Assembly (NCBI RefSeq): GCF_030538495.1
Contig: NZ_JAUNTW010000005.1
Span: 144,534 to 208,533 of the forward strand
Source of the DNA: Paracoccus sp. (in: a-proteobacteria)
GTDB lineage: Bacteria; Pseudomonadota; Alphaproteobacteria; Rhodobacterales; Rhodobacteraceae
Direction: 5' to 3'
DNA: 64,000 bases
The notes under the pieces were generated by a model. That model did not search any database. It had not been told where the DNA came from and saw nothing but the letters and a program-made list of their open reading frames with translations. Positions within the stretch are counted from its first letter, which is position 1; each line of letters begins with the position of its first letter. Position numbers and translations under genes: made by a program. Below are positions 40,772 to 51,194 of the stretch, piece after piece.

Positions 40772-42025
40772 GTGCTGGGTCTTACGTCTCTTATCCGATT
40801 GGGGGTCGATACGCTGCGCCGCGACGGGCTGGCGGTGACGGTCCGATCGACGATGCGTTATCTGGCGCGCCGGGCGGTGATGCGGGGCAATCGTTACTTT
40901 GAACAGGACGCGCGGCATTTCCGCGACATCGACCTGTCGGCCTATGCGCCGTCACGGGGCGGCGATTTCGATGTGGTGCTGGTCACGGATTTGCGGTTCG
41001 CCGGAGGGTCGGGGCAGTCATCCGTTCAGGAACTGGACATACAGGCGCGCCACGGCTTGCGGTCGGGGGTGTATCACATGGCCTCGCCGCTGATCCCCCA
41101 TGCGACACGGGTTGCCCCGGCCATGGACGGCCTGCTGCGGCAGACCGGGGTTGAGGTGCTGAACACCGCACAAACCCCGATCCGCACCAAGCTGCTGATC
41201 TTTCGCCACCCCACGATCCTGAATCCCGGCGGCGATGATCTGCCCGCGATCACGGCGGATCATCTGTGCCTGATCGTCAACCACCCGCCCGTCCAATTCG
41301 ACCGCATCCAGTATCTGCTGACCGATGCGCGGCGGAAACTGCGCGCCGCCTATGGAGTTCAGCCGCAGATTCACCCCATCGGCCCGCTGATCCGTGCCGA
41401 AATCGACGCTGTGTATGATGGCAGCGTGGATTTGGCGCAGCCCGATTGGGTGAATGTGTTCGACATCGCCCGTTTTGCCACGCCGCGCCGCGCGCCCGAC
41501 CCCGCGCGTCCGCTGCGCATCGGCCGCCATTCGCGGATGGACCCGGAAAAATGGCCTGCCGATGCCGCGACGATCCGTGCGGCCTATCCCGACCGGCCCG
41601 ATATTTCCGTGCATATTCTGGGCGGCGCCGATGTGCCGGCGCGGATTCTGGGCGGAGTGCCGTCAAACTGGACCGTTCACGCCTTTGGCAGCATCGACCC
41701 GGCGGATTTTCTGCGCGACATTGACGTGTTCGTGTATTTCCACCATCCCGACTGGATCGAAGCCTTTGGCCGCGTCATCGTCGAGGCTATGGCCGCCGGG
41801 CTGCCCGTCGTGGTGCCGCCGCATTTTGAACCTCTGCTGGGCGAGGCGGGCATTTACTGCGCGCCCGGTGACGTGGCGGATCAGTTGACGCAGCTGCGCG
41901 ATCCCGCCTATTACACGCACAAATCGCAGCTGTGCCGGGATATGGCGATGCGCCGGTTCAGCACGCAGGTTCATATCGACCGGCTGACGACCATCTGTCA
42001 TCCCCCTTCCGCCCCAGTCAGGTAA
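40772..42025 (+). CDS. GT4-family glycosyltransferase
   Basis: A 417-aa glycosyltransferase with a GT-B fold. The C-terminal donor site is clear: LRIGRHSRMDPEKWP and the GT4 E-x7-E motif in EAFGRVIVEAMAAGLPVVVP. The N-terminal 40 residues are amphipathic (LGVDTLRRDGLAVTVRST, then MRYLARRA) and resemble those of both Maf-like proteins nearby. The GTG start at 40772 is the only reasonable start before this segment. Sugar donor and acceptor cannot be told. It is the first gene of the locus, 84 bases after the gltB terminator and 6 bases before the next gene. Confidence 0.8.
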   Translation: MLGLTSLIRLGVDTLRRDGLAVTVRSTMRYLARRAVMRGNRYFEQDARHFRDIDLSAYAPSRGGDFDVVLVTDLRFAGGSGQSSVQELDIQARHGLRSGVYHMASPLIPHATRVAPAMDGLLRQTGVEVLNTAQTPIRTKLLIFRHPTILNPGGDDLPAITADHLCLIVNHPPVQFDRIQYLLTDARRKLRAAYGVQPQIHPIGPLIRAEIDAVYDGSVDLAQPDWVNVFDIARFATPRRAPDPARPLRIGRHSRMDPEKWPADAATIRAAYPDRPDISVHILGGADVPARILGGVPSNWTVHAFGSIDPADFLRDIDVFVYFHHPDWIEAFGRVIVEAMAAGLPVVVPPHFEPLLGEAGIYCAPGDVADQLTQLRDPAYYTHKSQLCRDMAMRRFSTQVHIDRLTTICHPPSAPVR

Positions 42026-42031
42026 CGAAAA

Positions 42032-44236
42032 TTGCATCATCGAACGCGGAAAACCCGCAGCACGACCGGATTGTTCACCAAGGCGATTGATCTGACCCGC
42101 ACCGTGGGTCTGGGCTATAGCGCGCGGGTGGCGGTGCGGTATCTGGGCAATGCCGCGCTGATCTGGGCCGAGGCTGGACGCGCCGCCGCGACCGGGCAGG
42201 GCGATCTGGCGGGCTATGCGCTGCGCTATCGTCCCGGTTCGGTGTCGGCGGTGACGCGCGACGCGATGTTCCGCGCCTGGGTCGATGACCTGATCACGCA
42301 AGGGCGGCTGGACCGCGCCGAACAGGGGCTTGAACGTCTGCGCCGCCGCTTTCCGGCCAGCCGCAGTTTTGCCAAAACCTATGCCCAGTTGGCGGTTGAG
42401 CGCGGCGACTGGGCGGATGCGTTGCACCGCTGGCAGGGCGTCGAACAGGCGCGGCCCGATCACCTGCGCCCGCTGCCCGCGCCATGGGTGCATCGCATTG
42501 GTCTGGACCGGGCCTTGGCGCAAACCGATGCGATGACACCGGGGCGCGCGCGCGCTTTGGGGATGCTGTCGCTGGCCCATGCCCTGCGCAACATCGAAGA
42601 AGCGCAGGCCCTGGGGCTGGCGCGCAAAGCGTCCGGGCATTACCGCGATCAGGTGCTGGCTTTGGTGGTGCGGGTGCTGTCCGCGAATATGCGCAGCAGC
42701 GCCGCGATCTGGTGGGCGCAGCGTCTGATCCAGACCAGCCAGACCCCGCGCCGCGATATGCCTTTGCTGGTGGATGGTTTGATTCTGGCCTCGCGTTTCG
42801 ATGACTGCGACCGGCTGATGGCGGATTATGCGGCGCGCTATGGCCGCGACACGCTGTGGCTGCGGGCGATGACCGAAATCGCCTATCGTCGCGGCGATCT
42901 GGACGCGATGCGCGCGGTGATGCAGGGCGCGCTTGATGCCAAGCTGGCGCAGTATCACCCCGATGTCCGGGTGTTGAACTGGCTGTATATGCTGATCCAT
43001 CTGTATCCAGAACCGGGCCGCGTCTTGCCACCGGACATTCAGGATTTGGCACTGGCGCTGACGGCGCGGTATGACGGCCCGATGGCTTTTGGCGGGATGC
43101 GCGTGCTGCTGCACCCGGATCGCACGCGCAAAACCGCAGATCGCCACGGCGACCAGATCGCGGCGGCGCGCGCGCAAGGCCGGCCAATGGCCCCCGCCGA
43201 TCAGGAATTCATGGGCAAAATCGCCCTGCTGCGGCGGGATTGGTCGCGGATGGCTGATCTGGCGGCGCTGCCTTTGCCCGATATGCCCGACCTGAGCGCC
43301 GCTAAACAGGGCTGGTCCATTGCGCGGCAACGCATTGACCTGCATCTGGCGGCGGCGGATGTGGCGGCTGCCGAGGCTGCCGCCTGCGATTTTCTGGACC
43401 GTCTGCAAGCCGCTGGCTTTGATCATTACGGGATGGAGATCGCCTCGGGGCTGGTGTTTCGCCTGCCCATTTCGGACGCGGTGCTGAGCCGTCTGCTGGC
43501 GGCGGCGCAGCGGCTGGATTTCGCGCCCATGGTTCAGCGTCTGAGCGCATGGCGCGACCGTTACGGCGATTTGGACCCGGCGGCGGCGCTGCGGCCTGCG
43601 ACGCGGGATCGGTGTTTTGTTCTGGGAAATGCGCCATCGGTGGCGGATTTGCCGCTGCATTTGCTGCAAAACGACGATGTTTTTTGCCTGAACCGAGGCT
43701 TGCGGGCCAAGGCCATCGGCCTGCCGCAGCCCAAATATCTGGTCGTGGCCGACCCCTATGTGTATCGCAGCCATGCGCATGAAATTGACGCCGACGGCGC
43801 GTCGGTGGATCAGTTTTTTATCGGCGCGAACTGCATCTGGCGGCGTCAGCCGACCGTTCCGGCCATGGTGTTTGGCACCTCGGGGCTGAAATTGCCACTG
43901 CGGGCGTTTGACCCCGCGCCGCTGCATTTGCACCGCGGGGAAACCGTGGCGATTTTGGCGGCGCAGATCGCGATGCAGATGGGCTATCGCGACATTTATA
44001 TTCTGGGCGTCGATCTGGATTATGGCGGCGCGGCCACGCATTTTTACGGCGGCGGGCGCAAAGAAACCGACCGGCTGAGCAATTTCCGCCCCGGAGGCTC
44101 GGGCGCTGATCTGGTCAATCTGTCCTTTGCCAGTTTGCAACAGACGGCCGCAAAGGTCGGCTGTCAGATGCATAATGCGTCGCCCATGGGCAATCTAACC
44201 GCGCTGCCCCGCGTCGATTTCCGCAGTTTGTTTTAA
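42032..44236 (+). CDS. TPR-like/Maf-type (DUF115) protein 1
   Basis: A 734-aa protein. Residues about 60-510 are helical TPR-like repeats (DRAEQGLERLRRRFPASRSF, AVERGDWADALHRW). Residues about 525-734 are a Maf/MptE-like (PF01973-type) domain: CFVLGNAPSVADLPL, DVFCLNRG, PKYLVVADP, IYILGVDLDYGG, THFYGGGRKE. In other bacteria Maf proteins transfer nonulosonic acids to flagellin; that role is inferred here. The TTG start at 42032 is uncertain, but no ATG or GTG precedes the conserved N-terminal segment. It is a paralogue of the gene at 48300-51149. Confidence 0.75.
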   Translation: MHHRTRKTRSTTGLFTKAIDLTRTVGLGYSARVAVRYLGNAALIWAEAGRAAATGQGDLAGYALRYRPGSVSAVTRDAMFRAWVDDLITQGRLDRAEQGLERLRRRFPASRSFAKTYAQLAVERGDWADALHRWQGVEQARPDHLRPLPAPWVHRIGLDRALAQTDAMTPGRARALGMLSLAHALRNIEEAQALGLARKASGHYRDQVLALVVRVLSANMRSSAAIWWAQRLIQTSQTPRRDMPLLVDGLILASRFDDCDRLMADYAARYGRDTLWLRAMTEIAYRRGDLDAMRAVMQGALDAKLAQYHPDVRVLNWLYMLIHLYPEPGRVLPPDIQDLALALTARYDGPMAFGGMRVLLHPDRTRKTADRHGDQIAAARAQGRPMAPADQEFMGKIALLRRDWSRMADLAALPLPDMPDLSAAKQGWSIARQRIDLHLAAADVAAAEAAACDFLDRLQAAGFDHYGMEIASGLVFRLPISDAVLSRLLAAAQRLDFAPMVQRLSAWRDRYGDLDPAAALRPATRDRCFVLGNAPSVADLPLHLLQNDDVFCLNRGLRAKAIGLPQPKYLVVADPYVYRSHAHEIDADGASVDQFFIGANCIWRRQPTVPAMVFGTSGLKLPLRAFDPAPLHLHRGETVAILAAQIAMQMGYRDIYILGVDLDYGGAATHFYGGGRKETDRLSNFRPGGSGADLVNLSFASLQQTAAKVGCQMHNASPMGNLTALPRVDFRSLF

Positions 44237-44255
44237 CGCGGGGCCTTATGTCGGA

Positions 44256-44993
44256 TCACGAACCGGTCGGACCAAAAGACGGGGCCGGAATGCCGTTTTC
44301 GGTGATCCAATTTTCGGTCGTCTTGATATCTTCAAGACTGTGGACATCCAGACAGCCTTGGGTTGGATAGGGCTTGATCCGCGTGCCCATACAATCCCAC
44401 GGCCCCTGTCCGCCAGGCGTGCGGATGGCATCAGCACGCAGCGCCCAGATCGAATGGTCAAAGAAATAGCAGGTGGGCAAATCCTGACGATTGGCCGACA
44501 CCGGTTTTCCTGTATTCACAAAGGGTTCCAGCAGGCCCTGATCCGTCACGCCCTTGGCCCGCATGGGGTGGTATTCGTTGAATTCATGGCTGGGCACAAC
44601 CGAACTTAGGCTGGGATCCGCTAGCAGCATATCAATACAGTCGTCGATAATCTGTTCCGAAATGGTGCCGACATTGGCGTGCTGCACCACGACGATATCG
44701 GTGGGACCGTCGGCCTCGATGGCCTTCAGCGCATGGCGGACGGCATCGCAGCTTTGCGCGGTGTCGCTGGCCAATTCATCGGGCCGGCGGATTTTCGTAT
44801 AGCCCGCAAGCGCCGCTGTGTCCAAAATCCGGTCATCATCGCTGCTGATATAATAACGGCCGATATGGGTGCTGCGCCGCGCCGCCGCCGCCGCCCAATG
44901 CAGCAGAGGATGACCCAAAACCGGCAAAATGTTTTTATCTTTCAAAGAGCTGCCGCCGCGGCCGATCATTAACGCTACGATCTTGGGGTTCAT
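44256..44993 (-). CDS. Cytidylyltransferase, NeuA-like (CMP-nonulosonate synthetase)
   Basis: A 245-aa nucleotidyltransferase of the acylneuraminate cytidylyltransferase family. The CTP-binding loop is MIGRGGSSLKDKN (residues 9-21; the family usually has ARGGSKGIPxKN), followed by HPLLHWAAAAARRS, YISSDDDRIL and RRPDELASDTA. Those motifs match NeuA, PseF and LegF, which activate sialic, pseudaminic or legionaminic acid with CTP. Its start overlaps the stop of the ATP-grasp gene (ATGA). It is convergent with Maf-like gene 1, with only 19 bases between. Confidence 0.85.
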   Translation of the reverse strand: MNPKIVALMIGRGGSSLKDKNILPVLGHPLLHWAAAAARRSTHIGRYYISSDDDRILDTAALAGYTKIRRPDELASDTAQSCDAVRHALKAIEADGPTDIVVVQHANVGTISEQIIDDCIDMLLADPSLSSVVPSHEFNEYHPMRAKGVTDQGLLEPFVNTGKPVSANRQDLPTCYFFDHSIWALRADAIRTPGGQGPWDCMGTRIKPYPTQGCLDVHSLEDIKTTENWITENGIPAPSFGPTGS

Positions 44994-46081
44994 TCTTCTT
45001 CTCCTGCTGTTTCAAAGCTGTCTAAGAATTTTTGATATTCAACGAAGATCTTTCCATTTAACATATCGGTGTGCAATCGTGCCTGTGCGTTGATAAATCG
45101 TTCCCCCAACATACGGTCAAATTCTAAGTTAAACTTTTCGTAACCGCCAGGTGCGCTTGTGAATTCACCGACGTACAGGCCTTTGTTTGTCATGAAAAAA
45201 TCAATTCGTAGAAATGGCAACGGAACAAGCTTGCTTAGATCTGATGCTATTTTGTTCCAGTTATCAGGGTACCCCGCCCCCGAAAACAGCGCATCGGGAT
45301 ATTTCCCGCTGATTTTTTCTTTGCCATCGACATAAAAACAGTGTTTATCCTCATTTCCCAGCCGACAGCCTTCGAGGGCTAACCCGATTTCACCATAAAA
45401 GGTATAGAATTTTAGGTCATTAGGAACGCCTCCATCGTGCCCCTCTAGCAATTCTTCTGTCAGGAAGCGTTTCGAAAGTAAATAGCCGGAATCAATTTGT
45501 CTCTTCACCTCGTCTTTGACTTGGTCAAAAGACGAATATTCTTGTTTCGTTTTTAGATTTATAATACGTCCATCAGCCTTGAAAACGAAAACGCCTTTTG
45601 AGCCGCTGTCATGCATCGGCTTTAGAATCGTACCCGGCTTGACCGAAATATTCTCGATTCTTTCGCCAACTTGATATTGCTCAGCAACCTTAAAGCCGTT
45701 GGTAAGGGCAAATTTGCGACCACTTGTTTTTTGGAAAAGACGTCTGTTTCTTTTGATCCCGATGGATTGTGAAACAGCATTTGTGAACGCCCGATACTGG
45801 GACATAGAAGCAGAAAATGACGCGCCGACGGGAATGCGTTTATAGTTCTTTCGGACTCTCCATTCAGTTAAATATTCTGTAGGCACTGACATTAATATCT
45901 TGTCATGGAGGTCGGCGCGGCCCAGCGCTGTCATTTTGGAGGCAAGCCTGAATGCAGAAACTGCATTCATTTTCCCATCTTCGCGTGATTTGACGATCGC
46001 CGTATCCACAATCGTTTCCAAATCAAGATTCTGCGGCATTTTCAGGTATCGCAAGATATCAGAAAAGGTTGTATCTTCCAT
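44990..46081 (-). CDS. TupA-like ATP-grasp protein, low GC
   Basis: A 363-aa protein whose residues about 150-320 match the TupA-like ATP-grasp family: LKPMHDSGSKGVF (nucleotide loop), VPNDLKFYTFYGE, LPFLRIDFFMTNKGLYVGEF and a final TSAPGGYEKF. Such proteins are found in polysaccharide loci (teichuronopeptide-type) and are thought to ligate an amino acid or other acid to a sugar. Base composition is strikingly different: two sampled 60-base lines total about 41% GC against about 70% in a line of the adjacent gene, so recent acquisition is likely. It starts 7 bases after the NeuB fusion gene. Confidence 0.75.
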   Translation of the reverse strand: MEDTTFSDILRYLKMPQNLDLETIVDTAIVKSREDGKMNAVSAFRLASKMTALGRADLHDKILMSVPTEYLTEWRVRKNYKRIPVGASFSASMSQYRAFTNAVSQSIGIKRNRRLFQKTSGRKFALTNGFKVAEQYQVGERIENISVKPGTILKPMHDSGSKGVFVFKADGRIINLKTKQEYSSFDQVKDEVKRQIDSGYLLSKRFLTEELLEGHDGGVPNDLKFYTFYGEIGLALEGCRLGNEDKHCFYVDGKEKISGKYPDALFSGAGYPDNWNKIASDLSKLVPLPFLRIDFFMTNKGLYVGEFTSAPGGYEKFNLEFDRMLGERFINAQARLHTDMLNGKIFVEYQKFLDSFETAGEEE

Positions 46082-46088
46082 CTTATCC

Positions 46089-47630
46089 TCACGTCGCGCT
46101 GCGGAAATATTTGTGGTGTTCGCTGTCGTTCACCTTTTTTTCCTCGGACCCGATAATCACTTCGGCTTCGCGGATGGCGGCGACGTAATCGGCGAATTCG
46201 CGCGTGGTCAAATCCAAAGCGACCGCGTCAAAATGCGCCCATTCGGTGTTGCCCAGTTTGACATGCTTTTCCACCATTTTCGCGCCTGCGGCCACGGCCA
46301 GTTTAGATGCGGTCGCGCCGAAATCATGGCTGGAATAGGCCGGAACGATATGAGGATGGTCTTTGGACAGGTCGCGGTAATGACGGATCACGCCAATATC
46401 GCAATCATGCAGCGGCGTGGGATAGGCCGAATTGCACTGCATCAGATACAGCCGGTCGCAATTCGTGAAGGTTTCCAGCACCCAGTTTTCATAGGCTGTA
46501 TCGGTCATGCCGGTTGATAGAACAATCCCGCCCCGGTAATTCTGCGCCACATGCGCCAGATATTCGGTATGTTCCGAAATCGTGGACGGCAGTTTCACCA
46601 GATCGGGCTGGAATTGCTGCATGAAATGGAATGACGGTTCATCCAGAACTGACGCAAACCAGCGGATGCCCAAATCTTTGCACAGACGATCCAGATATTC
46701 AAAGTCATCCTGGCTGAGTTCAAGCTGGCGGCGATAATCGCGGAACGTCTTCCCAAAAGGCGAGACATATTTACTGTCAAGCTGTTCCTGCGAATAAAAG
46801 GTTTCGATATCGCGTTTCTGCACCTTGATAAAATCGGCACCTGCGGCGCTTGCGGCGCGCACCATGCGTTCCAGCCGGTGCCGGTCGCCAAAGTGGTTCG
46901 TGGTCAATTCGGCGGTAATCAGCACGCGATCCGGCGATTGGGCCGCGTCATGCGCCACACGCGGCAAAAAGCGCGCGCCCAGTTCTTCGGGCGTCAGCGA
47001 CGAAAACGCCCGGTCGCCGACATGCTGCACATCGATTTCACTGTCGCGCAGCATATACAGCGTGTTGACGAAGTAATATTCCTGCGGCGTAAACCGGTCA
47101 TGCCGTTCGTTTTTATGGGCCGGTGCAAAATCGTGGTCGATCGCGTGGGCATATCCTTTGTCCGCCGCAAAATCAAAGCCGACCATATAGACGGTTTGAC
47201 GGCGTCCGCGTTGCTGAGCGATCAGACGCGCCAGACGCAGGGCCGACAGGAACAGAATATCTTCGATCACGAAATCCTGACCCGGCTCGTCGCAGACCAG
47301 CCGACCCATCATCATATCGGTGCCTTCCTGAGACCCCGGCACATAATCGCTTTTGATCACATGAATATGCGACCCCGACAATTCGGTCGAGGTAATATAC
47401 AAGCGCGACCGCCAGCCGCTGGCCTGCAACGCATCATGCACCCAGTCGTCATGGAAAATCGAAATATCGCAGGGCGCGATCCGTTCCGCATCATTCAGGC
47501 CGATTACCAAAGCATTGGCGAAAATGGCCGGGTTGATGCGGTCAATCGACGCCCCTTTACCCAGAATGAAGATCGTATCGGTGCCGAATGTCGACGCGAT
47601 ATTTGCGACCTGGCGCGAGAAATTCTCCAT
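46089..47630 (-). CDS. Maf-like domain fused to NeuB-type nonulosonate synthase (no SAF domain)
   Basis: A 513-aa fusion. Residues about 18-225 resemble the Maf/MptE-like fold (IFILGKGASIDRI, ALVIGLNDAER, VYMVGFDFAADKGYAH). Residues about 236-512 are a NeuB TIM barrel: VLITAELTTNHFGD, AGADFIKVQKRD, GGIVLSTGMTD (about 368-378), QCNSAYPTPLHD, YSSHDFGAT, KMVEKHVKLG, and a closing SEEKKVNDSEHHKYFR. NeuB condenses phosphoenolpyruvate with an N-acetylhexosamine. The usual C-terminal SAF (antifreeze-like) domain is absent. The start at 47630 has GAAGGA upstream and overlaps the phosphatase gene by 74 bases; 47660 is a second option. Confidence 0.82.
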   Translation of the reverse strand: MENFSRQVANIASTFGTDTIFILGKGASIDRINPAIFANALVIGLNDAERIAPCDISIFHDDWVHDALQASGWRSRLYITSTELSGSHIHVIKSDYVPGSQEGTDMMMGRLVCDEPGQDFVIEDILFLSALRLARLIAQQRGRRQTVYMVGFDFAADKGYAHAIDHDFAPAHKNERHDRFTPQEYYFVNTLYMLRDSEIDVQHVGDRAFSSLTPEELGARFLPRVAHDAAQSPDRVLITAELTTNHFGDRHRLERMVRAASAAGADFIKVQKRDIETFYSQEQLDSKYVSPFGKTFRDYRRQLELSQDDFEYLDRLCKDLGIRWFASVLDEPSFHFMQQFQPDLVKLPSTISEHTEYLAHVAQNYRGGIVLSTGMTDTAYENWVLETFTNCDRLYLMQCNSAYPTPLHDCDIGVIRHYRDLSKDHPHIVPAYSSHDFGATASKLAVAAGAKMVEKHVKLGNTEWAHFDAVALDLTTREFADYVAAIREAEVIIGSEEKKVNDSEHHKYFRSAT

Positions 47631-48303
47631 GATAGGGTTTTCCTTCAACTTCGATGTCACATTTATGTTCCAGTGCCAGCATCAGACCGGGCAACAAATC
47701 CCAAGAATAGGCACCGCGTGGATTGGTAAAGCGGGCAAAGGCGCCACGCACGACGTTATAGAGATTATACACCGCACAGCCCATCAGGCGGCTTTCCTGC
47801 GTTTCGGCCATGCCTTGCAGAATTTCGTCGCACATGGATGACGAAAACCCGCGAATACGCGACTGAATGGGCGTCAATTCATCGCCGGTCATCAGATATT
47901 CGCGCAATTCCGGCATAAACAGCAGGCTGCCCAAATGCGTTTCGCCATGCCACAGCGTAAAAGACACGCCCCATTCTTTCAGCCCGGAACAGAAATTCTC
48001 GGTCCCGTCGATGGGGTCCAGAATGGCGTAATATCCGGTGCTGGTCAGTTTGGTATCGTCGCCGAAACTTTCTTCGCCCGCAAAGGTAATATCGGGGATG
48101 TGCGTGGTCAGATAATCGCGGATTAACCCCTCGATCAGGATATCGGCCGCGGTGACGGGGCTGTTATCCGGCTTCAGCGTGATGTCATAGCGTTTGGCCT
48201 GAATCGCCGCCATATTGTCGGTAATCAGCGCCATCAACCCATGCATCAGCGCGCGGGTCTGGTCCAGAGAGGGCAGGCGGTCCGTCGGGAAAAGGTCAGT
48301 CAT
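47557..48303 (-). CDS. Inositol-monophosphatase-family phosphatase
   Basis: A 248-aa metal-dependent phosphatase (IMPase/FIG superfamily). Metal ligands and motifs: AGEESF (residues 76-80), DPIDGTENF (96-104) and WD at 201-202 in GAYSWDLLPG. Substrates in the family include inositol phosphate, PAP and sugar phosphates. Here it sits inside a nonulosonic acid operon, coupled by ATGA to Maf-like gene 2 and by a 74-base overlap to the NeuB fusion, so a sugar-phosphate substrate in that pathway (for example a nonulosonate 9-phosphate) is a reasonable guess. Confidence 0.82.
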   Translation of the reverse strand: MTDLFPTDRLPSLDQTRALMHGLMALITDNMAAIQAKRYDITLKPDNSPVTAADILIEGLIRDYLTTHIPDITFAGEESFGDDTKLTSTGYYAILDPIDGTENFCSGLKEWGVSFTLWHGETHLGSLLFMPELREYLMTGDELTPIQSRIRGFSSSMCDEILQGMAETQESRLMGCAVYNLYNVVRGAFARFTNPRGAYSWDLLPGLMLALEHKCDIEVEGKPYHGEFLAPGRKYRVDIRHRYDLHSG

Positions 48304-51149
48304 TCCGTGGCTTTCTGATGGTCCGGTTCCAATTCCGGCTTGTCTAACCCAAGCAGGTCGTAAAAATCCACCCGCTCCAGACTGTCCAGACGACCGCCCG
48401 GTGCGGCGTTCATCAGGCGGCAGCCATCGGCCTCGACCGCTTTTTGCAGGTTTTGGAACGACAGATTCACCAATTCGGTGCCAGATCCTCCGGGGCGGAA
48501 ATTGGACAGGCGTTCGGTTTCCTTGCGCCCGCCGCCATAGAAATGGGTCACCGGCCCGGAATAGTCCAGATCAACGCCGATGATCACGATTTCTTTATAC
48601 CCCATCAGATGCGCGATCTGCGCGGCCATGATGACCACCGTTTCGCCGCGATGCAGGTGCAACGGGGCGTGACGGAACGGCGCAAGCGCCATCTTCAGCC
48701 CGGAACTGCCCAGCGGGATGGCCGGAACCGTGGGTTTCTGACGCCACAGGCAGTTTGACGCGACAAAGAACTGTTCCACCGACGCGCCGTCGCGGTCGAT
48801 TTCCGCCGCATGGCTTTTGTACACCAGCGGATCGGCCACAACCAGATATTTCGGCTGCGGCAGCCCCACATCCAAAGCGCGCATCCCGCGATTGACACAG
48901 AAAATATCTTCGCCCGCCAATGCGTGCAGCGGCAGCGTGGCAATGGATGGCGCGTTGCCCACGATAAAGCACCGCTTGCGGTCAGCCCGAGGATGCGCGG
49001 CGGCGGCGTCAATCCCGGCATAGGCATCGCGCCAGTCGGCCAGCCGCTGCGCCATCTGATCAAAGCCCAGACGCAGCGTGGCGCCATGCAGCCGGTCCAC
49101 AATCGCCACCGAGACCGGCAACCGCAGCAGCAGCCCCGACATCAGCGACACCATCACATCGTCCAGATCGGCTTGCGCCAGCTGGTCCAGAAACTGCACG
49201 GCGATCGCCTCGGCCTGCGCGACATCGGCCTGACCCAGACGCAGATCAATCATGGTGCGGACGATGTTCCAGATCTTTTTCGCGGTGTCGCGGGTGATCT
49301 GATCGGGCAGGGGCAGCGCCAGAACCGCATCCACCTGCGCCCAGTCGCGGCGGCGCATGAACATCTGCAACATCTCTTCGCGCAGAACCGGGTCCAGTTC
49401 GGTGCCGGTCGTGGTCGCGCGCGCAAGCTGGTCGGCATAGCTGCGGGCGACTGCGTCGCCTTGGGCCGGGTTCAGCAACATGCCCAGCGAACTGGTCAGG
49501 AACGCGCCGTCATAGGTCCGCGCCGTGTTCAAAATCAGCGGGTTCAGCTGCGCCGGGAAAAAGCTGTCGGGCGTCGGATGCATGCGGATCAGGTCGTAAA
49601 TCCAGCGGGTGACGCGCACCGTGCCGGGCGCTGCGGGCCGTTTTTTGGCGGTCGCCGTGGCCATCAGGCTTTGCAGGGCCACGAAATTGCTGCGCCGGTA
49701 ATGGATTTCCAGCCACGCGCGCAGCCATGCCGTGTCCTGCCCATAATCGCGTTCATACCCATCCAGCAGCTGTTCGCATTCATCCAGCCGAGAGCTTTCC
49801 AACAGCGATTCAAACAGTTGCGGATAATAAGGGCGCGGAGCGTCCGATTGGGTGATCAGCCGCTTCAGCCACCAGATCGCGGCGCTGTGGCGGGTATTGG
49901 TGGCCAGAACCTGCGCGACCATGGCCTGAACATCGGTGGCATAATGGCGGCGCGCCTTGCGGGCGATCAGCAGGGCTGCGACTTCGTCCACGGGCTGCAT
50001 CACGGCGGCCAGTGACAGCATACCGGTGGCGCGCAAATGCGGGTCGGTCAGGGCATGGGTCTGACGGGTGGCGTCGGCCACGCCGATGCGATGCACCCAT
50101 GCGGCGGGCAGGGCGGCAGATTGCGCGGGCACCAGATCCTGCACCCGATGCCAGCGGCTCAGCGCCCCGGCCCAATCCCCTTGCAGGATCGACAATTCGG
50201 CATGAAGGCGGGCATATTTCGCGGATTTCGGATGTTGTTCGATCAGGGTTTCGACGCGATCCTGCGCCGCCGCCATATCCTGACCGGCGACCAAGGCGCG
50301 GACGGCTTTGTCATTGCTGGTCTGCTGGGTCGCGCCGTCGGTGACGGCAGCGCGGTCCAGCCAGAACTGCGCGGCACCCGTCCAGTCGCCCCGCGCCTCG
50401 GCCAGCAAGGCTGCCACGCGCAGGGTCGGGCTGCTATCGGGCGCGATGCTGCGCAGTTGCGCCACGATCCCGGCGGCGTCCACGGTGTTGCCGGTGTTCA
50501 GCATCGCGTCCACCACCTGCGGCATCAGGGCGGGGTCGATCACCCAGTCAGCCGCATCCAGCATATGCCAGCGGCGCACCGCTTCGGGCCAGCGTTTGGT
50601 TGTCAGCGCCGCGCGGCAATGGGCATCGGCCAGCAGATAATTTTGCGGCATCTGCGCCATGGCGCGGTCAAGAATGGCATCGGCGCGTGGAGCATCACCC
50701 ATGGCAGCCACGGCCTGCGCCATGCGGATATGGGGCAGGGCGTCTTTGCAGATTTCGCGCTGCCACAGCAAGGCGGCCGCCCGCCAGTCGCCGCGTTTTT
50801 CGGCGGCCTTGGCCTGTTCCGTCAGGCTGCCCGATGATGTCGCGGTGGTTTTTTTCGCGCCGCGCTTTTTTGCAGCGGGCCTAGGCCGGTCCGACGACCC
50901 AAACGCCGCCCGCCCGATATAGCGGATGCTGGACCCGATGGTGGCCAAAGCACCCGCCTCGGCGTAGCGCGTTGCGACCATTTGCATGATGGTTGGCTTT
51001 TGGTTTTTTTTGGCCTTAGCGGGGAACGACACGCGGGTTTCCTTTGATGATGTGCGCAAGACCGGCTGCCCGCGCGTTCTGCGCTGTTTCGGCCTCATTT
51101 CCTGCGGGGCTTGGCTGGGACGGTGCGGTCCCGTTTGCTGATCCGCCAT
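48300..51149 (-). CDS. TPR-like/Maf-type (DUF115) protein 2
   Basis: A protein of about 949 aa, paralogous to the product of 42032-44236 across both its TPR-like region and the C-terminal Maf/MptE-like domain (KRCFIVGNAPSIATLPL near residue 727, IFCVNRGMRA, PKYLVVADPLVYKSH, IVIIGVDLDYSG). It has about 55 extra basic, Pro-rich N-terminal residues. Start choice is uncertain: 51164, 51149 (used), 51098 or 50987 are possible, and 50987 would align the N-terminus with its paralogue. It heads a five-gene minus-strand operon and is preceded by a CtrA-type box. Inferred role: nonulosonate transfer to flagellin or another surface protein. Confidence 0.75.
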   Translation of the reverse strand: MADQQTGPHRPSQAPQEMRPKQRRTRGQPVLRTSSKETRVSFPAKAKKNQKPTIMQMVATRYAEAGALATIGSSIRYIGRAAFGSSDRPRPAAKKRGAKKTTATSSGSLTEQAKAAEKRGDWRAAALLWQREICKDALPHIRMAQAVAAMGDAPRADAILDRAMAQMPQNYLLADAHCRAALTTKRWPEAVRRWHMLDAADWVIDPALMPQVVDAMLNTGNTVDAAGIVAQLRSIAPDSSPTLRVAALLAEARGDWTGAAQFWLDRAAVTDGATQQTSNDKAVRALVAGQDMAAAQDRVETLIEQHPKSAKYARLHAELSILQGDWAGALSRWHRVQDLVPAQSAALPAAWVHRIGVADATRQTHALTDPHLRATGMLSLAAVMQPVDEVAALLIARKARRHYATDVQAMVAQVLATNTRHSAAIWWLKRLITQSDAPRPYYPQLFESLLESSRLDECEQLLDGYERDYGQDTAWLRAWLEIHYRRSNFVALQSLMATATAKKRPAAPGTVRVTRWIYDLIRMHPTPDSFFPAQLNPLILNTARTYDGAFLTSSLGMLLNPAQGDAVARSYADQLARATTTGTELDPVLREEMLQMFMRRRDWAQVDAVLALPLPDQITRDTAKKIWNIVRTMIDLRLGQADVAQAEAIAVQFLDQLAQADLDDVMVSLMSGLLLRLPVSVAIVDRLHGATLRLGFDQMAQRLADWRDAYAGIDAAAAHPRADRKRCFIVGNAPSIATLPLHALAGEDIFCVNRGMRALDVGLPQPKYLVVADPLVYKSHAAEIDRDGASVEQFFVASNCLWRQKPTVPAIPLGSSGLKMALAPFRHAPLHLHRGETVVIMAAQIAHLMGYKEIVIIGVDLDYSGPVTHFYGGGRKETERLSNFRPGGSGTELVNLSFQNLQKAVEADGCRLMNAAPGGRLDSLERVDFYDLLGLDKPELEPDHQKATE

Positions 51150-51177
51150 GATCTCTGGAAACATTTACACAATATTT

Positions 51178-51194
51178 ATTAACGCGGCGTTAAT
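51178..51194. promoter_or_regulatory. CtrA-type box in the divergent region
   Basis: ATTAACGCGGCGTTAAT is a perfect 17-bp palindrome containing TTAA-N7-TTAA, the CtrA consensus of alphaproteobacteria. It lies 29 bases upstream of the Maf-like gene 2 start (51149) and 134 bases upstream of the plus-strand dehydrogenase gene. AT-rich sequence (AATATTTATT) next to it could form the -10 of the minus-strand promoter. Confidence 0.6.

What the first reader, a model, noticed from the sequence alone, without database searches (positions are those of the whole stretch)
40772..51194. Candidate nonulosonic-acid protein glycosylation locus
Seven genes form a coherent set: a GT4 transferase, two large TPR-like/Maf-domain proteins, a Maf-like::NeuB fusion, a NeuA-like cytidylyltransferase, an IMPase-family phosphatase and a TupA-like ATP-grasp protein. 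Maf proteins in Campylobacter, Aeromonas and others add pseudaminic or legionaminic acid to flagellin. Here the arrangement (two TPR-Maf paralogues, a fused synthase, no NeuC or Pse/Leg enzymes nearby) does not match a pathway I know. Inference: it makes and attaches a sialic-like sugar to flagellin or another surface protein, possibly further modified by the ATP-grasp enzyme.
Basis: partly seen in the sequence, partly recalled or inferred. Interest (0 to 1): 0.85.

Follow-up and report, generated by a model that had tools for sequence, protein, structure and literature searches.

The report
Phosphatase-coupled sialic-acid-like sugar island
This small gene island most likely makes a sialic-acid-like surface sugar through phosphorylated intermediates, using an apparently undescribed two-domain enzyme that also turns up in scattered other bacteria, including some E. 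coli capsule clusters.

The parts
40772..42025 (+). GT4-family glycosyltransferase, 417 aa
   Evidence: PF13692 42.6 bits; tblastn relatives in 10 of 69 fusion loci, 8 of them at 164-196 bits
42032..44236 (+). TPR-Maf1: TPR repeats plus C-terminal Maf/PF01973-type domain, 734 aa
   Evidence: PF01973 22.8 bits, 26.7 bits, both under the cut-off; 49% identical to TPR-Maf2
44256..44993 (-). NeuA-like CMP-nonulosonate synthetase, 245 aa
   Evidence: CTP_transf_3 51.4 bits; best PDB match a CMP-NeuAc synthetase, 6ifd; PseF 63.2 bits, under its cut-off, ahead of Kdo synthetases at 29 bits
44990..46081 (-). TupA-like ATP-grasp protein, 363 aa; possible carboxylate amidation (inferred)
   Evidence: PF14305 102.7 bits; low-GC segment; only one other fusion locus, L061, has a relative, about 9 kb from its fusion
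46089..47630 (-). Fusion enzyme, 513 aa from the ATG at 47630: Maf/GT42-fold N-terminal domain plus SAF-less NeuB-type barrel
46953..47630 (-). N-terminal Maf/GT42-fold domain of the fusion (226 residues modelled)
46089..46934 (-). C-terminal SAF-less nonulosonate-synthase barrel of the fusion
   Evidence: PF03102 155.1 bits; 12 of 15 checked Neisseria NeuB positions identical in 62 of 62 fusions
47557..48303 (-). IMPase-family phosphatase, 248 aa; proposed nonulosonate-9-phosphate phosphatase
   Evidence: PF00459 65.6 bits; under all NCBIfam cut-offs; metal-motif residues E77, D96, D99, D202 in 46 of 46
47557..47630 (-). 74-nt overlap of the IMPase end and the fusion start in different frames
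   Evidence: overlaps in 39 of 41 measured homologous pairs
48300..51164 (-). TPR-Maf2: TPR repeats plus C-terminal Maf/PF01973 domain, 954 aa
   Evidence: PF01973 35.5 bits, over cut-off, 31.1 bits, under; relatives upstream of IMPase-fusion in L039, L071, L073

Best explanation
The island makes and transfers a nonulosonic acid by a phosphorylated route. (1) The SAF-less NeuB barrel of the fusion condenses PEP with an aldohexose-6-phosphate, most simply Man-6-P, to a nonulosonate-9-phosphate (Kdn-9-P). (2) The overlapping IMPase removes the phosphate. (3) The NeuA-like enzyme makes the CMP-sugar. (4) Maf/GT42-fold domains (TPR-Maf1, TPR-Maf2, perhaps the fusion's own N-terminus), with the GT4, place it on a surface glycan, more likely a KpsC/KpsS-type capsule than flagellin. 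The TupA-like enzyme may amidate a carboxylate. Shown by sequence or model: domains, conserved residues, conserved cassette, no NeuC-family gene. Inferred: the sugar phosphate, the order of steps, the role of the fusion's N-terminus, TupA's role, the acceptor.
For: Synthase: of 15 Neisseria NeuB positions checked (roles recalled), 12 are identical in 62 of 62 fusions, metal histidines H215 and H236 among them; closest folds are PseI, NeuB and SpsE-type, with Kdo8P synthases from rank 13. Phosphorylated route: IMPase gene just upstream in 58 of 69 loci, overlapping in 39 of 41 measured pairs, metal motifs invariant in 46 of 46; a K-R / Y-R(K) / W signature in the barrel shared with several standalone SAF-less relatives, two of which are followed by HAD genes; literature: a phosphatase step goes with synthases that take a phosphorylated sugar (PMC6200933, passages). 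Alternatives reduced: no PF02350 in this genome or in 18 of 49 fusion-bearing genomes; 0 of 69 loci with a NeuC, PseB or PseG match. Man-6-P supply: PF01050 match, 169.9 bits. CMP-sugar: synthetase within 5 kb in 49 of 69; a GT29 sialyltransferase-family gene near the fusion in L060, with homologues in L063 and L070. Capsule: kps-type genes in 11 of 69 stretches, L071 in detail; KpsS, Poly_export and KpsC together in the window's genome. Precedent: Serratia KL1/KL2 capsules contain Kdn; neuC does not occur in that text (PMC9000132, passages).
Against: No member of the fusion family has a known product. 11 of 69 loci, all Nesterenkonia or Garicola, have no IMPase match just upstream (two of them have under 500 nt of sequence there). 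The signature and SAF loss do not track perfectly: Leptospira 6ncs is only 290 aa and lacks the signature, and Pseudorhodobacter and Azospirillum thermophilum have it in part. Only 2 of 5 annotated standalone genes of about 280-307 aa have a phosphatase gene next to them (yes; no: 82, 85, 105), and one of these two (Azospirillum) sits beside NeuC, LegB and LegC. Four loci also carry a further NeuB/PseI-type gene: L037, L046, L064 and L065, the last 52% identical to a PseI. The Serratia NeuB is a different fusion (COG1082). kps genes are not linked to the island in this genome, and 58 of 69 stretches show none (stretches at most 10 kb each side for most). No type I phosphomannose isomerase. ManNAc-6-P via NanE was not tested.
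Confidence: 0.57

Rival explanations
1. Protein O-glycosylation: the same CMP-nonulosonate is attached by the TPR-Maf proteins to flagellin or another surface protein, the TPR part binding the protein.
For: TPR plus Maf-type domain; Maf enzymes glycosylate flagellin, and FlmG's TPR part binds flagellin (PMC7591256, passages); the genome has a flagellin; kps genes are not linked to the island here.
Against: No flagellin match in 69 neighbourhoods; own flagellin about 180 kb away; of three loci with TPR-Maf beside IMPase and fusion, one is in a kps locus and one beside polysaccharide-type genes.
Confidence: 0.3
2. A Neu5Ac-type product by the phosphorylated route: ManNAc-6-P plus PEP gives Neu5Ac-9-P, then IMPase and NeuA act as above.
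For: Same cassette logic; human synthase takes both Man-6-P and ManNAc-6-P (PMC6200933, table in passages); Serratia capsules contain some Neu5Ac besides Kdn (PMC9000132).
Against: No PF02350 epimerase to make ManNAc from UDP-GlcNAc. NanE was not searched for.
Confidence: 0.15
3. The IMPase is not a pathway enzyme: it serves sulfation (CysQ-like) or inositol metabolism, and the barrel uses a free, unphosphorylated sugar.
For: The IMPase resembles HisN and CysQ models (60.0 and 47.8 bits, far under cut-off); two weak sulfotransferase matches downstream in Halomonas L014; a published E. coli survey predicts inositol as a separate precursor (PMC10433991, section 5).
Against: Near-constant and mostly overlapping pairing with the fusion in very different glycan loci.
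Confidence: 0.12
4. The fusion's N-terminal domain is not a transferase but a nucleotide-binding or regulatory relative of the MptE-type pyrophosphokinases (concerns the domain only; compatible with the best explanation).
Against: Best match is Maf, and GT42 and GT29 sialyltransferases match at 8-10; profile similarity to the TPR-Maf domain, 80% probability.
Confidence: 0.4

Closest known systems
Kdn-9-phosphate synthase / phosphatase / CMP-Kdn synthetase pathway (Bacteroides thetaiotaomicron, Prymnesium parvum; PMC6200933)
   Same: Three steps: PEP condensation with a sugar-6-phosphate, dephosphorylation, CTP activation; no NeuC-type step
   Different: Here the synthase lacks SAF and is fused to a Maf/GT42-fold domain, and the phosphatase is IMPase-family (the Bacteroides one is HAD-type, recalled)
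Serratia marcescens KL1/KL2 neuA-neuB capsule loci (Kdn:Neu5Ac about 20:1; PMC9000132)
   Same: Kdn in a capsule; neuA and an oversized, fused neuB; neuC does not occur in the text
   Different: That NeuB (2241-bp gene) carries a COG1082 isomerase-like domain; no phosphatase is mentioned in the text (word count 0)
Maf glycosyltransferase (PDB 5mu5) and GT42 sialyltransferases Cst-I/Cst-II
   Different: Joined to a synthase or to TPR repeats; no flagellin neighbour found in 69 loci
FlmG of Caulobacter (PMC7591256)
   Same: N-terminal TPR part plus C-terminal transferase-like part
   Different: FlmG's transferase part is of the GT-B superfamily; here Maf/GT42-like
E. coli group 3 (kps) capsule clusters of unknown structure (PMC10433991)
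   Same: NeuA-like, IMPase and fusion genes lie together in kps-type loci of E. coli
   Different: No TPR-Maf or TupA match in those loci; the paper's text lists sialic acid and inositol precursors separately. That its clusters are these loci is my reading

Membership tests
NeuB / PseI nonulosonate synthase | PF03102 barrel | tested here: met
   155.1 bits, cut-off 22.1
NeuB / PseI nonulosonate synthase | Curated equivalog score (TIGR03569, TIGR03586) | tested here: not met
   135.3 of 399.65; 111.7 of 340.25
NeuB / PseI nonulosonate synthase | C-terminal SAF domain | tested here: not met
   No SAF-domain match at E<=0.1; the protein ends just after the barrel
Kdo-8-phosphate synthase | Closest relatives are KdsA | tested here: not met
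   Foldseek ranks 1-12 are PseI, NeuB and SpsE-type; Kdo8P synthase first at rank 13
Kdn-9-phosphate type pathway | Synthase, phosphatase and CMP-synthetase genes together | tested here: met
   Window; IMPase 58 of 69; CMP synthetase 49 of 69
Kdn-9-phosphate type pathway | Works without a NeuC-type epimerase | tested here: met
   No PF02350 in own genome; none in 18 of 49 fusion genomes searched, completeness not told
Kdn-9-phosphate type pathway | Man-6-P specificity | not testable with these tools
   Needs an enzyme assay
Maf glycosyltransferase (PF01973) | PF01973 over curated cut-off (TPR-Maf2) | tested here: inconclusive
   35.5 bits, 31.1 bits; cut-off 34.6
Maf glycosyltransferase (PF01973) | Maf/GT42 fold of the fusion's N-terminus | tested here: met
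Maf glycosyltransferase (PF01973) | Transferase activity | not testable with these tools
   Needs an assay
Flagellin glycosylation island | Linkage to flagellin genes | tested here: not met
   No flagellin match in 69 loci, one query; own flagellin about 180 kb away
ABC-transporter-dependent capsule locus | Linked kpsM/E/C/S genes | tested here: inconclusive
   Linked in 11 of 69 stretches, L071 in detail; in the window's genome KpsS, Poly_export and KpsC are on another contig

The most novel reading that the evidence does not exclude
The fusion defines an undescribed family of enzymes that both start and finish nonulosonate decoration: a SAF-less nonulosonate-9-phosphate synthase joined to a Maf/GT42 transferase, translationally coupled to its own phosphatase through overlapping genes. 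The cassette moves horizontally among at least seven phyla, E. coli capsule plasmids included, as a portable sialic-acid-like module that NeuC-based annotation misses.
Probability: 0.33. Interest if true: 0.8.

Novelty: new variant of a known kind. Interest (0 to 1): 0.6.

Why it matters
If right, bacteria have a portable, phosphorylated route to a sialic-acid-like sugar that annotation based on NeuC, Pse or Leg genes misses, because its genes carry generic names (NeuB-family, inositol monophosphatase, cytidylyltransferase). It would predict Kdn or a close relative in some E. coli group 3 capsules of unknown structure and in scattered alphaproteobacteria, actinobacteria and Bacteroidota. It would also give a NeuB-type enzyme that works without the SAF domain, which makes the role of that domain testable.

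Tried and rejected
Pse, Leg or Neu5Ac through known enzymes: judged unlikely, as tblastn at 1e-10 with one query each found NeuC, PseB and PseG in 0 of 69 loci and PF02350 is absent from the genome. In the same call LegB matched 19 loci at 24-33% identity, which I read as RmlB relatives (in the annotated E. coli loci these genes are rfbB); LegC and PseC each matched the same 4 loci (L060, L064, L065, L066); and SAF-type NeuB or PseI queries found a stronger second NeuB-type gene in L037, L046, L064 and L065.

Kdo locus: rejected. The genome's other CTP_transf_3 gene (121.7 bits) is the likelier KdsB, not checked further.

Type I phosphomannose isomerase not found. Promoter-like and terminator-like patterns were no more than chance: 3 against 4.4, 14 against 12.6 expected. 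Profile search of the TPR-Maf alignment against the PDB hit TPR proteins, and Cst-II only at E 0.65-0.92.

Papers: PMC13171606 and PMC13171598 hold none of Kdn, sialic, nonulosonic, neuB, inositol in the main text (find). Searches (listings, titles and starts of abstracts) showed none that describes this fusion; subscription papers and bioRxiv are not in the library. PMC3210612 (passages) gave no Kdn for Sulfitobacter or Loktanella.

Odds: on rechecking, the standalone SAF-less genes with a phosphatase neighbour are 2 of 5, Leptospira 6ncs breaks the SAF/signature link, and four loci have a second NeuB-type gene; I lowered the best explanation from 0.60 to 0.57 and the novel case from 0.35 to 0.33.
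Full report
Observation. The two TPR proteins are 49% identical paralogues whose C-termini score near the PF01973 cut-off of 34.6 bits: 35.5 and 26.7 in a six-frame scan, 31.1 and 22.8 by hmmscan. The fusion most likely starts at the ATG at 47630, because two close relatives, L014 and L039, carry a stop just upstream; it then overlaps the IMPase gene by 74 nt. GC falls to 0.44-0.54 over 45-48 kb.

Rarity and spread. In 295 genomes drawn from the window's family the fusion matched at E<=1e-30 only in the window's own genome, and TPR-Maf2 at E<=1e-40 only there among 248. A scan of the species-genome collection returned 64 loci with a relative (patterns from the N-terminal domain). Full-length ones are 40-74% identical and lie in Pseudomonadota, Actinomycetota, Cyanobacteriota, Deinococcota, Bacteroidota, Balneolota and Planctomycetota; several are metagenome bins. 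It is also in 15 of 5426 complete E. coli genomes, 12 times on chromosomes and 3 on plasmids, and on an Enterobacter plasmid. The pattern and the GC dip fit horizontal transfer (inference).

The synthase half. It matches PF03102 but is far under the NeuB and PseI equivalog cut-offs, shows no SAF domain, and its nearest solved folds are PseI, NeuB and SpsE-type, ahead of Kdo8P synthase. Nineteen fusion barrels form one clade (100/100) apart from the NeuB, PseI and SpsE references, on a long branch (3.1), so its place is unsure. Of 15 Neisseria NeuB positions that I recall as catalytic or ligand-binding, 12 are identical in 62 of 62 fusions; N74, T110 and N184 are Ser instead, positions where the references vary too. 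A second set (K272-R273, P291, G293, Y299-R300, W324, W464) is shared fully, or with K for R300, by standalone relatives from Methylomagnum, Hymenobacter, Demequina and Nonomuraea, in part by Azospirillum thermophilum and Pseudorhodobacter, and not by the longer SAF-type references (Chromobacterium 3g8r has R273 alone; Prochlorococcus L045 has A272). Leptospira 6ncs, 290 aa, lacks it although short, so the link between SAF loss and signature is not strict.

The phosphatase. An IMPase gene lies within 1.6 kb upstream on the same strand in 58 of 69 loci; the 11 without are all Nesterenkonia or Garicola, two with under 500 nt upstream. In 39 of 41 measured pairs the genes overlap, counted from the longest-ORF start. 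Metal-site residues are invariant in 46 of 46. Of five annotated standalone genes of about 280-307 aa, two have a HAD gene next to them (Methylomagnum, Azospirillum thermophilum) and three do not. The published Kdn work says that dephosphorylation belongs to routes starting from phosphorylated sugars (PMC6200933, passages). This is the main argument for a sugar-phosphate route.

What is missing fits. The genome has no PF02350 epimerase and only weak PF02719 matches; 18 of 49 fusion-bearing genomes have no PF02350 (50 of 64 loci asked, one not held, completeness not told); none of 69 neighbourhoods matched NeuC, PseB or PseG. Four neighbourhoods do hold another NeuB/PseI-type gene, in L065 52% identical to a PseI. 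The genome has a PF01050 mannose-phosphate isomerase domain but no type I enzyme. Kdn from Man-6-P is the simplest product; Neu5Ac-9-P from ManNAc-6-P is not excluded.

The acceptor. Homologous cassettes lie in kps loci of E. coli and Enterobacter. In Brevundimonas naejangsanensis (L071) TPR-Maf, IMPase, fusion and NeuA follow ABC-2, Wzz-like and ABC genes and face two Capsule_synth genes. kps-type genes appear in 11 of 69 stretches, two of them the same E. coli allele; 58 show none. The window's genome has KpsS, a Poly_export protein and KpsC together on another contig. No flagellin match lies near any of the 69. I favour a surface polysaccharide, with protein glycosylation as a serious rival.

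Known or new. The pathway type and the folds are known. This fusion with its overlapping IMPase partner is not described in the papers I found (searches by listing; passages of PMC9000132, PMC6200933, PMC7591256, PMC3210612; sections 5 and 7 of PMC10433991). In E. coli it has probably been listed as separate 'CMP-sialic acid' and 'myco-inositol' functions (PMC10433991, section 5); that identification is mine.

Noticed in passing
L060:12992-13717 (cluster homologues L063:13028-13783, L070:8492-9277): GT29 sialyltransferase-family domain (PF00777, E 3.3e-17) near the fusion in Fulvivirga marina; two further Bacteroidota loci have a homologue.
   Followed up: partly
L093:5004-6947: Azospirillum thermophilum: short NeuB-like gene followed by a protein with a weak nucleotidyltransferase match and a HAD domain, beside LegB, LegC and NeuC genes; recalls the layout of animal CMAS.
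   Followed up: partly
L094:3672-5864: Nonomuraea gerenzanensis: one open frame of 730 codons that appears to join a NeuA-like start with a short NeuB-like part (start uncertain).
   Followed up: no
L087:847-6459: Methylomagnum plasmid cluster: transketolase halves, class III aminotransferase, SDR, short NeuB-like gene and HAD-IIIA hydrolase; perhaps another unusual ulosonic acid route.
   Followed up: no
L045:2786-5708: Prochlorococcus single-cell genome AG-676-M04 carries IMPase, fusion and NeuA-like genes; either a picocyanobacterial surface sugar or a contaminant contig.
   Followed up: no
L037:9926-20269: Demequina oxidasica has the fusion and a second, standalone short NeuB-like gene about 8 kb away.
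   Followed up: partly
L012:15534-16370: E. coli YJ6 capsule locus has a CatB-type O-acetyltransferase gene between the cytidylyltransferase and IMPase genes, suggesting an O-acetylated sugar.
   Followed up: no
L014:13579-15504: Two weak sulfotransferase-family matches downstream of the cassette in Halomonas halodenitrificans.
   Followed up: no
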